A model generated the notes under the pieces. It had not been told where the DNA came from. It saw only the letters and a program-made list of their open reading frames with translations, and made no database searches. Made by a program: the position numbers and the translations under genes. Below, piece after piece: positions 51,415 to 59,625 of a DNA stretch of 64,000 bases. The stretch comes from Eubacteriales bacterium (lineage in GTDB: Bacteria; Bacillota; Clostridia; Tissierellales; GPF-1), in NCBI GenBank assembly GCA_030625815.1, contig DAOUQF010000006.1, forward strand, positions 1 to 64,000. The letters run 5' to 3'. Numbering within the stretch: the stretch's first letter is position 1; the number at the start of each line of letters is the position of its first letter.

Positions 51415-51437
51415 TCAATTTGTTCCATAAAATAGAA

Positions 51438-51610
51438 GAACTGTATAATCTCTGTAATATGGTCAGGGAGTTTCTACAGGATCACCTTAAATGATCCTAC
51501 TATGGTGAGAAGACATCCTTTCTTGTGAGGAACAGAGTCTCTGTTGCTGCAGGTTTGTTTTGTGTATTTGCTTTTTTAAGCTGATAATCTCTCCGGTTAT
51601 CAGTTTTTTT
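51438..51610 (+). ncRNA. purine riboswitch (guanine-type) with terminator
   Basis: The aptamer (about 51438-51508) contains the conserved TATAAT...TAATATGG, GTTTCTAC, CCTTAAA and ACTATGG blocks in order. P2 forms from CTCTG/CAGGG and P3 from AGGATC/GATCCT. The ligand-reading base aligns as C (TACTATG), predicting guanine/hypoxanthine rather than adenine. An intrinsic terminator, CTGATAA/TTATCAG with seven T residues (51581-51610), is the expression platform. The downstream genes encode a purine permease and a phosphoribosyltransferase, which fits ligand-induced termination. Confidence 0.93.
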
Positions 51611-56672: not shown

Positions 56673-56716
56673 ATAATAATCCACCTGCCTTGAATACCGG
56701 AGAAGTGGATTATTAT
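56673..56716. other. isolated 12-bp stem-loop
   Basis: Perfect arms ATAATAATCCAC and GTGGATTATTAT with a 20-base loop, no T-run on the plus strand. It lies between the GNAT gene and the Trp-leader promoter in a stretch with no gene. Role unknown. Confidence 0.5.
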
Positions 56717-56758
56717 TGCGATGTTTGGATAGATATTAAGAAAATGTAAAAAAAGTGC

Positions 56759-56787
56759 TTGACGGAGTCGGGAAAACTCGATATACT
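56759..56787 (+). promoter_or_regulatory. promoter of the Trp-importer leader
   Basis: TTGACG (56759-56764), exact 17-bp spacer and TATACT (56782-56787). The spacer contains a GAGT/ACTC dyad. The transcription start is expected near 56794, giving a leader of about 250 bases. Confidence 0.85.
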
Positions 56788-56818
56788 AGCGATAAATAAT
56801 TTCGAAGGAGGCGGAACA

Positions 56819-56911
56819 ATGAAAATGACTATGATGAATTGGCGTTGGCAAATGAATGAACTTATTAAAAAAGCTGATAACATGGGTCAGGTTCGTTTGT
56901 TTGCCGTATAA
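56819..56911 (+). CDS. tryptophan leader peptide (30 residues)
   Basis: A strong site, AAGGAGGCGGAACA, precedes an ATG encoding a 30-residue peptide: MKMTMMNWRWQMNE then LIKKADNMGQVRLFAV. Two Trp codons (56840-56842 and 56846-56848) flank a single Arg. The second Trp codon overlaps the first base pairs of a 15-bp RNA helix. Its role would be to sense Trp-tRNA supply by ribosome stalling rather than to act as a protein. It is the first gene on the transcript of a TrpXYZ-like importer. Confidence 0.85.
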   Translation: MKMTMMNWRWQMNELIKKADNMGQVRLFAV

Positions 56912-56964
56912 TCGATTTTTAGATTAAGTCAATTGGAACCTGTGCCTCGCGTGCGGGTTTTTTT
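56847..56964 (+). promoter_or_regulatory. ribosome-mediated transcription attenuator
   Basis: Region 1 (56847-56861, GGCAAATGAATGAAC) pairs fully with region 2 (56891-56905, GTTCGTTTGTTTGCC), 15 bp including three G-U pairs. Part of region 2 with upstream bases (56888-56894, CAGGTTC) pairs perfectly with region 3 (56936-56942, GAACCTG), overlapping the 5' arm of an intrinsic terminator. That terminator is CCTGTGC/GTGCGGG (56939-56957), with flanking A-T pairs and seven T residues to 56964. A ribosome stalled at the Trp codons covers region 1 and frees 2:3. A ribosome at the stop codon (56909) covers region 2 and lets the terminator form. Confidence 0.85.
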
Positions 56965-56994
56965 ATGCTTGAAATAAGTGTAGCTGTAGATCAT

Positions 56995-57027
56995 GAGTCT
57001 ATCCGTAGGGGTAGGCTCTTTTTTTAT
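56995..57027 (+). terminator. second terminator in the Trp-importer leader
   Basis: 10-bp stem GAGTCTATCC/GGGTAGGCTC (three G-U pairs), four-base loop, seven T residues, only 18 bp before the first importer gene. No alternative pairing is obvious, so it may set a ceiling on expression or be controlled separately. Confidence 0.75.
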
Positions 57028-57044
57028 TAAGGGAGGAGACAACA

Positions 57045-58019
57045 ATGAAAATTCAGATGGAAAAAGTGGTGGGTTTAGGGATTGGCATCCTGGTAATGGT
57101 AGGTTTACTGGCAGGTTGTACGGAGGCTGAGTCGGCGACGGAAACGGAAGCGAAGCCGATTGAAATTGGAATAACACAGATCGTTGAGCACCCGTCTTTA
57201 GATGAGATTAGACAAGGAATTATCGATCAACTGGAAACCGAGGGGTTTTCTGATGGACAAGAAATTGCCATTGATTTTCAAAATGCCCAAGGAGCCATTG
57301 AGAACACGCAGATGATTGCTCAGGAATTTCAGTCGAGAAAAAAAGATTTGATTATTGCGATTACGACGCCAAGTGCGCAAAGTATGAAAAATGTCATCGA
57401 TGGAATCCCGGTGGTCTTCTCGGGGGTTACGGATCCTGAGGGTGCGGGTTTGATTGGACCCGGGATGACGGGAGTCAGCAATCAAGCACCAATTGACAAG
57501 CAATTCGAGTTGCTGCAGAAATTAGTGCCGGATGCAAAAATCATCGGGATGGTTTATAACAGTTCGGAAGCGAATTCGGAATTCCAAGTGCGAAAGGCGC
57601 AGAAACAAGCGCTGCAAATGGGCTTCGAATTGGAATTGGCAGTCATTACTTCAACCAACGAGATGGGCATCGCCCTGGATCAATTGTTGCCAAAGGTTGA
57701 TGTGTTGTACACCCATCAAGACAATACAATTGCTTCTGCATACCCGGTTGTGATCGAGAAAGCGAAGGAAGCGGATGTTCCAGTTATTGGATCGGTTGAG
57801 CAGTATATTCAGCAGGGCGCGATCGCCATGGATGGTGTAAGTGATTATCAGGTTGGAATTCAAACCGGCAAAATGGTGGCTCGAATCCTGAAAGGTGCGA
57901 GTGTGGACGAAATTCCATTTGAAACCGTTCCGGAAACGGTGTTGAAAGTGAATGAAGAGGCGCTGGCATTCTTTGGCATTGTATTGCCGGAAGACGTACA
58001 GGCGCGATTGGGTGAATAA
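57045..58019 (+). CDS. trpX: ABC transporter substrate-binding lipoprotein, TrpX-like
   Basis: 324 residues. Lipobox LAGC with Cys25, then the ABC_sub_bind (PF04392-type) fold: IEIGITQIVEHPSLDEIRQG, LIIAITTPSAQSM, VFSGVTDPEGAGLI and YTHQDNTIASAYPVV. Characterised relatives (TrpX) bind tryptophan and other aromatic amino acids. AAGGGAGGAGACAAC precedes the start. The Trp-codon attenuator upstream independently supports tryptophan as ligand. Gene symbol is by family and context. Confidence 0.85.
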   Translation: MKIQMEKVVGLGIGILVMVGLLAGCTEAESATETEAKPIEIGITQIVEHPSLDEIRQGIIDQLETEGFSDGQEIAIDFQNAQGAIENTQMIAQEFQSRKKDLIIAITTPSAQSMKNVIDGIPVVFSGVTDPEGAGLIGPGMTGVSNQAPIDKQFELLQKLVPDAKIIGMVYNSSEANSEFQVRKAQKQALQMGFELELAVITSTNEMGIALDQLLPKVDVLYTHQDNTIASAYPVVIEKAKEADVPVIGSVEQYIQQGAIAMDGVSDYQVGIQTGKMVARILKGASVDEIPFETVPETVLKVNEEALAFFGIVLPEDVQARLGE

Positions 58020-58043: not shown

Positions 58044-58886
58044 ATGGATTTTCTTTCATTATTGGAACAAGGACTGATATTTGGCATTATGGCAGTAGGA
58101 ATTGTAATCAGCTTTCGGATCTTGAACTTTCCAGATCTTTCAGTAGATGGCAGTTTTGCGTTGGGGGCCGCAGTTTCAGCGAGTGTGCTGATTAATGGCG
58201 GGTCGGCGATTCTGGCAACCCTCGCGGCAATCATTGCGGGATTTGCGGCAGGATCGGCAACTGGACTGATCCACGCCAAGGGGAAAGTGGACGGCATTCT
58301 GTCGGGGATCTTGGTGATGATTGGGCTATATAGTGTAAATCTGCGGATTATGGGAAAATCCAATATCCCTCTATTTGCAGTGAATCATCTATTTGCTTCA
58401 AAGGAAGGCAGTCTTTTAAAAATTGTTTTAATCGTAGCGGCGGTTAAAATTGTGATTGATTTGTTTTTACGTACCCATGCGGGTTTTGTTTTAAGAGCCC
58501 TTGGCGACAACACGAAAGTGGTTGAAGGCTTGGGCGTCAATCCTGGGAACTACAAAGTTCTCGGTCTCGGGTTGGCCAATGGGCTGGTTGCTTTATCCGG
58601 TGGATTAATGTCGCAATATCAGGGATTTGCCGATATCAGCATGGGAATCGGAAGTCTGGTTACGGGGTTGGCATCCATTATTCTGGGTGAAAGCCTGCTG
58701 AAGCGTTTTGGGTTTATTGGTGTGACAACCATCGCTATCGTAGGCAGCGTGATTTATCGAGTCATTCTGGCAATGGCCATTCATTATGGATTACAGCCGA
58801 GCGACTTAAAATTGGTAACGGCGTTGATCTTGTTGGTGATTCTAATTTTGGAAAAGAAAATGGGAGGGAAATATGCTCGAGTTTAA
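58044..58886 (+). CDS. trpY: ABC transporter permease, TrpY-like
   Basis: 280 residues, eight to nine helices, of the branched-chain/BPD_transp_2 permease type. Visible are MAVGIVISFRILNFPDLSVD, GSFALGAAVSASVLINGG, the coupling segment ALGDNTKVVEGLGVN and GLASIILGESLLKRFG. GGGGTGAGG precedes the start. It overlaps the ATPase gene by 14 bases. It forms the membrane channel of the importer. Confidence 0.88.
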   Translation: MDFLSLLEQGLIFGIMAVGIVISFRILNFPDLSVDGSFALGAAVSASVLINGGSAILATLAAIIAGFAAGSATGLIHAKGKVDGILSGILVMIGLYSVNLRIMGKSNIPLFAVNHLFASKEGSLLKIVLIVAAVKIVIDLFLRTHAGFVLRALGDNTKVVEGLGVNPGNYKVLGLGLANGLVALSGGLMSQYQGFADISMGIGSLVTGLASIILGESLLKRFGFIGVTTIAIVGSVIYRVILAMAIHYGLQPSDLKLVTALILLVILILEKKMGGKYARV

Positions 58887-59625
58887 GCAGATTCAAAAAT
58901 CATTTCAAACCGTACAAGGCGAACAGGTTCTCTTTTCAGGCTTGGATCTCGCCATACAAAAAAATGAATTTGTAACCATGGTTGGAAACAATGGTGCCGG
59001 GAAGTCGTCTTTGTTTAAAATGATCGTCGGTGATATGCAACCGGATGGAGGTGACGTCTTATTGGGGAATCATTCCATTCTGTCGATGCCGACCCATTTG
59101 AAAAAGGCGCGAATCGGCAAGGTCTATCAGGATCCTGCCGCGGGCACGATTGGCATTATGACGCTTTTGGAAAATATGGCGTTGGCGGATCGAAAAGGCG
59201 AGCGAGTCAGTCTGCAATTTGCGATTCGGAAATCAGCGAGAGAACGGTACGGCGAATTGTTGAAAGATCTTGGATTGGGACTGGAAAACAAATTGGATAC
59301 GCCGATGAAGGAACTTTCTGGCGGGCAGCGACAAGCCGTTGCTTTGGTCATGGCGACCATGAAAACGCCACAATTACTTTTGCTTGATGAGCATACGGCG
59401 GCTCTCGACCCCAAAACGGCGCGCCTGATTCTGGATAAAACCCAGACCTTGGTGACGGAAAAGGGAATTATGACGATGATGGTCACCCATAATTTGCAGG
59501 ATGCCTTATCCTATGGGAATCGATTGATCATGATGCGGGAAGGCAAGATTGTGGAAGATGCGCAAGGCAGAACAAGAGATCAGCTTTCCTTATCTCATTT
59601 GCTTGAACAATTCTACACGGCATAA
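58873..59625 (+). CDS. trpZ: ABC transporter ATPase, TrpZ-like
   Basis: 250 residues. Walker A GNNGAGKSS, Q-loop VYQDPAAGTIGIMTLLENMA, signature LSGGQRQAVALVMA, Walker B LLLLDEHTAALDP (Glu replaced in position by the usual DEH form) and H-loop MMVTHNLQDAL. The GIMTLLENMALADR segment is typical of this importer group. It energises import. Followed by a terminator with a UUCG-capped inner hairpin. Confidence 0.92.
   Translation: MLEFKQIQKSFQTVQGEQVLFSGLDLAIQKNEFVTMVGNNGAGKSSLFKMIVGDMQPDGGDVLLGNHSILSMPTHLKKARIGKVYQDPAAGTIGIMTLLENMALADRKGERVSLQFAIRKSARERYGELLKDLGLGLENKLDTPMKELSGGQRQAVALVMATMKTPQLLLLDEHTAALDPKTARLILDKTQTLVTEKGIMTMMVTHNLQDALSYGNRLIMMREGKIVEDAQGRTRDQLSLSHLLEQFYTA

What the first reader, a model, noticed from the sequence alone, without database searches (positions are those of the whole stretch)
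56759..57045. Complete tryptophan leader-peptide attenuator in front of a TrpXYZ-like ABC importer
Seen directly: a consensus promoter, a strong Shine-Dalgarno and a 30-codon ORF with Trp-Arg-Trp. A 15-bp helix 1:2 begins inside the second Trp codon. A 7-bp perfect helix 2:3 overlaps the 5' arm of an intrinsic terminator 3:4 with seven T residues. Geometry fits: a ribosome stalled at 56846 would cover about to 56861, the end of region 1, and one at the stop codon would cover region 2 but not region 3. Established: this logic is known for trp operons of proteobacteria and some actinobacteria, whereas in Firmicutes trp genes and trpXYZ transporters are expected to be under T-box or TRAP control. 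Inference: this lineage uses ribosome-stalling attenuation for tryptophan uptake, which also gives independent evidence of the transporter's ligand.
Basis: partly seen in the sequence, partly recalled or inferred. Interest (0 to 1): 0.92.

Follow-up and report, generated by a model that had tools for sequence, protein, structure and literature searches.

The report
Tryptophan leader-peptide switch before tryptophan importer
In front of a probable tryptophan importer of a Clostridia-type bacterium lies a short leader gene with two tryptophan codons and a set of competing RNA hairpins that very likely lets a stalled ribosome switch the importer on when tryptophan runs out, a well-known trick for which related bacteria often use another kind of RNA sensor.

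Summary
In detail: promoter, Shine-Dalgarno, 30-codon ORF (56819-56911, MKMTMMNWRWQMNELIKKADNMGQVRLFAV), helices 1:2 and 2:3 and terminator 3:4, before a trpXYZ-like importer.

The element occurs in 3 of 3 held genomes of the genus, gapless over 220 nt, 94-96% identical (trpX DNA 71-82%); synonymous sites of the leader ORF are constrained too. The model search gave no convincing copy in the other 246 held genomes of the order. The 94-96% is what orthologous T-boxes show in these genomes: it marks a functional cis-RNA, nothing more exotic.

In folding models a ribosome stalled at either Trp codon gives antiterminator 2:3 for transcript ends 56946-56956 in all three species; one at the stop codon never does. 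For the next few bases equilibrium favours the terminator in most cases, so the switch must be kinetic. The genome's trpE has a T-box with specifier UGG; so has the nearest outside relative's trpX: a sensor exchange.

Best reading: a trp-type ribosome-mediated attenuator, a known kind in a new place (leader peptides instead of T-boxes in Firmicutes are in print for His and Leu). How T2 is passed is unexplained.

The parts
56759..56787 (+). sigma-70-type promoter TTGACG-17-TATACT
   Evidence: hexamers and spacing kept in 3 of 3 species, spacer diverged
56806..57025 (+). whole conserved element, SD to end of second U-tract, 220 nt gapless in three species
   Evidence: 94-96% identity versus 71-82% for trpX DNA; alignment A3
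56819..56911 (+). leader ORF, 30 codons, Trp at codons 8 and 10
   Evidence: synonymous differences 0.07-0.21 versus 0.59-0.73 in trpX
56840..56848 (+). regulatory codons Trp-Arg-Trp (TGG CGT TGG)
   Evidence: invariant in 3 of 3
56847..56861 (+). region 1 (5' arm of 1:2, 15 pairs)
56888..56905 (+). region 2 (3' arm of 1:2 at 56891-56905; 5' arm of antiterminator 2:3 at 56888-56894)
   Evidence: invariant in 3 of 3
56936..56942 (+). region 3 (3' arm of 2:3; lies in the 5' arm of terminator T1)
56935..56964 (+). intrinsic terminator T1 (3:4) with seven T
   Evidence: two wobble pairs are Watson-Crick in G001 and G002, but the outermost pair is lost there
56965..56994 (+). inter-terminator segment, invariant in all three species; role unexplained
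   Evidence: folds in every ribosome state tested once complete
57045..58019 (+). trpX-like substrate-binding lipoprotein
   Evidence: PF04392 259 bits; NF041285 TrpX 301.5 bits, below its 390 cut-off; 6hni, 3lkv, 3lft
58044..58886 (+). trpY-like permease
   Evidence: PF02653; kept next to trpX in G001 and G002
58873..59625 (+). trpZ-like ATPase
   Evidence: PF00005; kept in G001 and G002, cut by the locus end in G001

Best explanation
A trp-type, ribosome-mediated transcription attenuator controls the trpXYZ importer. With enough Trp-tRNA the ribosome reaches the leader stop codon and masks region 2, or has left and region 2 is held by region 1; terminator T1 forms and transcription stops. 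When Trp-tRNA is short the ribosome stalls at Trp8/Trp10, masks region 1, region 2 pairs with region 3 while T1's 3' arm is still being made, and RNA polymerase passes T1. Shown: all sequence elements, their conservation in three species, and, in equilibrium models, that 2:3 depends on ribosome position. Inferred: translation of the leader, stalling, that 2:3 persists long enough, termination, Trp as ligand. Not explained: how polymerase passes T2.
For: Element in 3 of 3 genus genomes, gapless. RNA-level constraint: leader ORF pS 0.07-0.21 against 0.59-0.73 for trpX; identities 206, 211, 207 of 220, within the 0.870-0.971 range of 29 orthologous T-box pairs of these genomes. Folding of nascent transcripts at 24 ends, 56943-56966, with ribosome footprints: for ends 56946-56956 the mean 2:3 probability is at least 0.54 with a stall at Trp8 or Trp10 in all three species; with the ribosome at the stop codon 2:3 is 0.00 at 24 of 24 ends in each species, and T1 reaches 0.95-1.00 at 56966; without a ribosome 2:3 is at most 0.02. 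Standard pairs over three species: 1:2 44 of 45 cells, 2:3 21 of 21, 3:4 31 of 33. Target family: solved relatives hold Tyr, Phe, Trp (PMC6816091, passages). The nearest outside relative (G040 trpX, 55%) has a T-box with UGG at the specifier.
Against: T2 (about -15 kcal/mol) folds in all ribosome states once complete, so T1 control alone would not express trpX unless T2 is leaky or also regulated. From about 56957 on, at equilibrium, the growing T1 displaces 2:3 even with a stalled ribosome: at 56960 2:3 is 0.01, 0.00 (own W8, W10), 0.89, 0.01 (G002), 0.02, 0.04 (G001); at 56966 it is back at 0.50, 0.23, 1.00, 0.87, 0.88, 0.94. So the model needs kinetic persistence, most of all in the window's own sequence. 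No two-sided compensatory changes. One 1:2 pair is broken in G002, where 1:2 without a ribosome reaches only 0.36. Six of 30 leader codons are Met, so codon content does not single out Trp. Only three species, one genus. No expression data. (Odds lowered from 0.80 to 0.77.)
Confidence: 0.77

Rival explanations
1. The leader senses another amino acid or general slowing of translation: Met (6 of 30 codons) or Arg9 rather than Trp.
For: Met codons 3, 5, 6, 12 surround the Trp codons; conservation is so complete that it does not single out the Trp codons (27 of 30 residues are the same in all three species).
Against: From the coordinates, a stall at Met5/6 would leave region 1 free; only Met12 is placed like Trp10. 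The target family binds aromatic amino acids and the nearest relative's trpX has a UGG T-box.
Confidence: 0.08
2. TnaC-like: free Trp makes the nascent peptide arrest the ribosome at the stop codon, masking region 2 and favouring T1, so Trp itself switches the importer off.
For: The peptide's second half is invariant (KKADNMGQVRLFAV) and the position would give the same direction of control.
Against: Synonymous sites are strongly constrained too (pS 0.07-0.21 against 0.59-0.73 in trpX), while three residues vary, which points to RNA at least as much as to peptide. No terminal Pro as in TnaC (recalled, no call).
Confidence: 0.06
3. The leader transcript or peptide also acts in trans, as reported for the Sinorhizobium trp leader peptide peTrpL, and T1/T2 are simply its 3' ends.
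For: Invariant stretches outside the classical helices (loop 56867-56887, inter-terminator 56965-56994); a dedicated second terminator.
Against: The degree of conservation equals that of ordinary T-boxes in the same genomes, so it needs no trans function. PMC7298713 seen as search listing with abstract start only.
Confidence: 0.05
4. Chance arrangement: an ordinary 5' UTR with terminators and an unused small ORF.
For: W-rich small ORFs with an SD are common by chance (4 in window, 4.3 expected).
Against: Same ORF, helices and terminators kept in three species where synonymous sites of trpX differ by 0.59-0.73; the combination with a terminator had mean 0.0 in 20 simulated windows.
Confidence: 0.02

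Closest known systems
E. coli-type trp operon attenuator (trpL; Rfam RF00513)
   Same: Leader ORF with close Trp codons, mutually exclusive 1:2, 2:3, 3:4, terminator with U-tract
   Different: No match to the family (RF00513 13.8 bits against 41 needed, E 4.7); drives an importer, not biosynthesis; longer peptide (recalled); second terminator
Actinobacterial trp and trpS attenuators (PMC1262725, passages read)
   Same: Gram-positive ribosome-mediated Trp attenuators with UGG codons (predicted, some studied)
   Different: Other phylum; biosynthesis and synthetase genes
Firmicutes leader-peptide attenuators: hisS*/hisZ (PMC2965389) and S. aureus ilv-leu (PMC5794164) (passages read)
   Same: Leader peptide where a T-box would be expected in Firmicutes
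   Different: His and Leu/Ile, not Trp; not a Trp importer
Streptococcus suis trpXYZ T-box (PMC9382623, passages read)
   Same: Same kind of importer, same signal (Trp-tRNA charging), transcription attenuation
   Different: Sensor is a T-box with specifier UGG, not a translated leader

Membership tests
Ribosome-mediated (trp-type) transcription attenuator | Short leader ORF with SD and codons for the amino acid the operon supplies | tested here: met
   ORF, SD and TGG8/TGG10 in 3 of 3 species; that it is translated, and that Trp is the ligand, not tested
Ribosome-mediated (trp-type) transcription attenuator | Mutually exclusive 1:2, 2:3, 3:4 with 3:4 an intrinsic terminator | tested here: met
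Ribosome-mediated (trp-type) transcription attenuator | A ribosome stalled at the regulatory codons lets 2:3 form; one at the stop codon does not | tested here: met
   model only: ends 56946-56956, all three species; 0 of 24 ends with the ribosome at the stop codon
Ribosome-mediated (trp-type) transcription attenuator | 2:3 then keeps 3:4 from forming | tested here: inconclusive
   at equilibrium T1 displaces 2:3 from about 56957 in 5 of 6 stalled cases, with partial return by 56966; kinetics not modelled
Ribosome-mediated (trp-type) transcription attenuator | Compensatory base changes in the helices | tested here: inconclusive
   too little variation; one-sided changes and three broken cells only
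Ribosome-mediated (trp-type) transcription attenuator | Read-through rises on starvation for the amino acid | not testable with these tools
   needs reporter or RNA ends
Rfam RF00513 Trp_leader | Covariance-model score at or above 41 bits | tested here: not met
   13.8 bits, E 4.7
T-box (RF00230) | Covariance-model match upstream of trpX in the window | tested here: not met
   none listed for 56700-57060 at E up to 10 nor window-wide at gathering
TRAP-controlled leader | About 11 (G/U)AG triplets 2-3 nt apart, and an mtrB gene (recalled) | not tested
TrpX (NCBIfam NF041285 equivalog) | Score at or above 390 bits | tested here: not met
   301.5 bits over residues 15-319 of 324: TrpX-like, not formally TrpX
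Trp-binding SBP by selectivity residues (PMC6816091, passages) | Non-acidic residue at the CD0873 Glu263 position and a Trp-permitting residue at the Tyr279 position | tested here: inconclusive
   Val251/Asp267 in the three genus members and in no other of 102 rows; unlike the Tyr type, but SP1069 has Ala/Gln, and three E/Y-type proteins (L102, L104, L105) stand behind a UGG T-box by pattern, so the rule is not strict

The most novel reading that the evidence does not exclude
A two-stage attenuator: a single ribosome stall controls two tandem terminators in series. Before T2 is complete, a small anti-T2 hairpin (56986-56991/56997-57002, -2.6 kcal/mol) is favoured when the ribosome sits at Trp8/Trp10 (0.78-0.79 own, 0.63-0.82 G002, 0.72-0.75 G001 at transcript end 57009, unconstrained folds) and disfavoured when it is at the stop codon (0.16, 0.27, at most 0.04), because leader codons 2-6, freed when the ribosome moves on, pair with that segment (0.53, 0.22, 0.63). 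Against it: in G002 the hairpin is as high without any ribosome (0.82) and falls to 0.08 when T1 is held with a stall at Trp8, and T2 wins in every state once complete. The same tandem plan in an unrelated Lapidilactobacillus leader (L035) would make serial terminators a recurrent design for leader-peptide control of trpXYZ in Bacillota.
Probability: 0.12. Interest if true: 0.72.

Novelty: new member of a known kind. Interest (0 to 1): 0.5.

Why it matters
It shows within one genome both Trp-sensing devices side by side (T-box on trpE, leader peptide on trpXYZ) and, within one order, what looks like a sensor exchange on related importers. That makes a natural test case for how and why RNA sensors replace one another. 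It also gives a ligand hint for a poorly typed aromatic-amino-acid importer.

Tried and rejected
Second antiterminator '4:5' (T1 3' arm 56952-56958 with T2 5' arm/loop 57001-57007): 7 pairs kept in all three (21 of 21 cells), but shuffles give a run as long in 0.18 and an energy as low in 0.055 of cases, and the equilibrium probability with 2:3 held is 0-0.13. Rejected as not shown; not excluded.

Region 2 as a second antiterminator against T2 ('2:5', 8 pairs, G-U rich): chance 0.11 (run), 0.32 (energy); populated only in G002 stalled at Trp8 (0.60-0.85 with T1 held, transcripts 57006-57012; up to 0.26 unconstrained). Rejected.

Hyperconservation as a sign of a trans-acting RNA: I first thought 94-96% exceptional; the T-box control showed it is ordinary for cis-RNAs of this genus. 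The control compared own T-boxes with 30 fetched loci of the 48 matches listed for G001 and G002; of 37 best pairs, 8 were evidently not orthologous (downstream BLAST score below 100 bits, identity 0.655-0.721) and are left out of the 0.870-0.971 range. The trpE T-box itself had no ortholog among the fetched loci.

T2 as a repeated genomic terminator word: TAGGCTCTTTT occurs once in the window (T2) and 0 times in 81,039 and 96,186 bases of loci from own and from G001/G002 (parts of the genomes only). One terminator of similar sequence lies behind an unrelated gene in G001 (L071).

Weak covariance-model hits outside the genus (G218, G139, G360; 20-24 bits) and a second weak hit in G001 (L071): inspected; all look like terminators, none has this leader.

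Selectivity-residue rule as proof of Trp binding: weakened by L102, L104, L105. My pattern also printed TGGAT for three Ala-Glu-Tyr proteins (L125, L129, L131); I took these for misreadings of the specifier place but did not check them.

First fold series sampled only four transcript ends, with footprints one base downstream of the exact place; it showed 2:3 high at 56950 but low at 56945 and 56958 in most stalled cases. One search repeated it at 24 ends with exact footprints and replaces it.

Leader peptide in plasmid records: no match. L035 trpX in plasmid records: nothing closer than 42.8% listed.

Full report
OBSERVATION. Exact places: promoter hexamers 56759-56764 and 56782-56787; leader ORF 56819-56911; Trp codons 56840-56842 and 56846-56848; 1:2 56847-56861/56891-56905; 2:3 56888-56894/56936-56942; T1 56935-56961 with T's at 56958-56964. 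A second terminator, T2 (stem 56995-57018, T's to 57025), whose stem ends 26 nt before the trpX start codon, was not mentioned. A window-wide scan found this the only SD-preceded small ORF with W.?W followed by a terminator within 160 nt (1 of 4 such ORFs; mean 0.0 in 20 simulated windows).

GENES. The downstream genes are an ABC_sub_bind lipoprotein (PF04392), a BPD_transp_2 permease and an ATPase. NCBIfam's TrpX equivalog matches residues 15-319 but below cut-off (301.5 of 390 bits). The three close solved relatives, 6hni, 3lkv and 3lft, hold Tyr, Phe and Trp (passages of PMC6816091). The trpX-trpY-trpZ order is kept in G001 and G002 (trpZ is cut by the locus end in G001).

CONSERVATION. The genome collection holds two further species of the genus, G001 and G002; G002's contig has the length of, and appears to be, that of the MAG 'Clostridiales bacterium GPF-1' (L031). 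Both carry the element directly upstream of trpX, in G001 with about 113 nt more between T2 and the trpX start. From SD to the end of T2's U-tract the three align without a gap over 220 nt; identities 206, 211 and 207 of 220 (own-G002, own-G001, G002-G001). trpX DNA is 75%, 71% and 82% identical for the same pairs. In the leader ORF the proportion of synonymous differences is 0.102, 0.212, 0.067, in trpX 0.634, 0.726, 0.594. So the RNA, not only the peptide, is under constraint. As yardstick I compared T-boxes of own with G001 and G002: 29 pairs with clear downstream orthology lie between 0.870 and 0.971 (8 of 37 computed pairs dropped as non-orthologous; 30 of 48 G001/G002 T-boxes had been fetched). 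The leader is thus constrained about as strongly as a T-box, no more.

COVARIATION. Over three species 44 of 45 cells of 1:2, 21 of 21 of 2:3, 31 of 33 of 3:4 and 30 of 30 of T2 are standard pairs; the changes are one-sided (wobble against Watson-Crick in T1 and T2) or breaks (one in 1:2 of G002; the outermost T1 pair in G001 and G002). Compatible with the helices, but no covariation proof.

MECHANISM MODEL. I folded nascent transcripts at 24 ends (56943-56966) with ribosome footprints kept unpaired. With a stall at Trp8 or Trp10, 2:3 exceeds 0.5 for every end from 56946 to 56956 in all three species (lowest 0.54). With the ribosome at the stop codon it is 0.00 at 24 of 24 ends in each. Without a ribosome it is at most 0.02, and 1:2 prevails in own and G001 (0.98-1.00 and 0.93-0.99 up to 56956) but not in G002 (at most 0.36). 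From 56957 on the growing T1 displaces 2:3 at equilibrium in 5 of 6 stalled cases (not G002 at Trp8); by 56966 2:3 is back at 0.50, 0.23 (own, Trp8 and Trp10), 1.00, 0.87 (G002), 0.88, 0.94 (G001), while at the stop codon T1 stands at 0.95-1.00. So the ribosome decides whether 2:3 can form, as in classical attenuation, but whether 2:3 lasts is a kinetic question that I did not model; the window's own sequence is the weakest of the three here.

SECOND TERMINATOR. T2 folds in all modelled states when complete. Possible relief by T1's 3' arm or by region 2 was not convincing in chance or equilibrium tests. A weak local hairpin (56986-56991/56997-57002, -2.6 kcal/mol against about -15 for T2) is favoured by a stalled ribosome and less so at the stop codon in all three species, but in G002 it is also high with no ribosome (0.82). 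It is the basis of the novel case, not of the verdict.

DISTRIBUTION. A covariance model of the three sequences found the element in 3 of 249 order genomes, all of this genus, with weak hits in two others, and in 1 of 391 class genomes (a sample that had the window's own genome but listed no match in G001 or G002), with one weak hit. The weak hits look like terminators. These large searches used stricter filters and scored few candidates per genome, so diverged copies may be missed.

SENSOR EXCHANGE. The own genome has 24 T-box matches, 21 over the cut-off; one stands directly before trpE, with UGG at the specifier position. The closest outside trpX (G040, 55%) has a T-box with UGG. In a table of 102 trpX-like sequences with upstream DNA (from the order and five other named records; not all matches were fetched), a leader like this one was found only in the three genus members; L035 has another kind; several further W-rich small ORFs look like chance.

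LIGAND. At the two positions named as selective in PMC6816091 the genus has Val and Asp, unlike the Tyr binder (Glu, Tyr), the Phe binder (Ala, Tyr) and the Trp binder (Ala, Gln). G040 has Val and Asn behind a UGG T-box. T-boxes with UAC or UUC by pattern stand mostly before Ala-Glu-Tyr proteins, some before Ala-Asp-Tyr and one before Ser-Glu-Tyr; but L102, L104, L105 (Ser-Glu-Tyr) have UGG by pattern, so the rule is only suggestive. Trp is the best guess.

PRIOR ART. Searches of the open-access library (listings capped at 15-20 papers) showed me no Trp leader-peptide attenuator in Clostridia and no leader-peptide control of trpXYZ; most subscription papers are not covered. Leader peptides instead of T-boxes in Firmicutes are reported for His in bacilli (PMC2965389, passages) and Leu in S. 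aureus (PMC5794164, passages). S. suis trpXYZ is T-box controlled (PMC9382623, passages). Hence: new member of a known kind.

POSSIBLE SECOND CASE. Lapidilactobacillus luobeiensis trpX (L035) shows no T-box at gathering, and none of its genome's 15 T-box matches lies on its contig C12. It has an SD and a leader MTQLSLTHAKSLKSWQSWRR, then a chain of overlapping helices A:B 12 of 13, B:C 13 of 13, C:D 10 of 12, D:E terminator 10 of 10, then a second terminator. At transcript end 3750 A:B has probability 0.82-0.98 with a stall at a Trp codon, 0.85 without a ribosome and 0 at the stop codon; at later ends B:C and the terminator prevail in all states, so a switch would have to be kinetic. None of the 7 other genomes of its genus has a close trpX (best 49%), so conservation could not be tested; of their upstream regions I looked only at that of L208.

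Noticed in passing
L035 3640-3855 (Lapidilactobacillus luobeiensis, NZ_BROC01000012.1): Candidate independent Trp leader peptide (MTQLSLTHAKSLKSWQSWRR) with a chain of overlapping helices ending in two tandem terminators before trpX; no T-box found, no close ortholog in 7 other genomes of the genus.
   Followed up: partly
window 56965-56994: Inter-terminator segment invariant in three species though outside the classical attenuator helices; an open frame MLEISVAVDHESIRRGRLFFY starts at ATG 56965 without an SD; role unknown.
   Followed up: partly
window 51421-51522: Purine riboswitch aptamer, 75.2 bits.
   Followed up: no
L060 (G000 contig C11, 31513-31860): trpE T-box with a long insert (348 nt match, 81 nt unaligned) that, by eye, holds a G+C-rich hairpin followed by seven T inside the T-box, as if an extra terminator were embedded.
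   Followed up: no
L102, L104, L105: Trp-type (UGG by pattern) T-boxes before substrate-binding proteins with the Glu/Tyr residues typical of the Tyr binder.
   Followed up: no
L184-L212 (29 trpX upstream regions from the family of L035's genome): No T-box core pattern in the 305-650 nt searched upstream of trpX in 29 of 29; their regulation is open (pattern search only).
   Followed up: no
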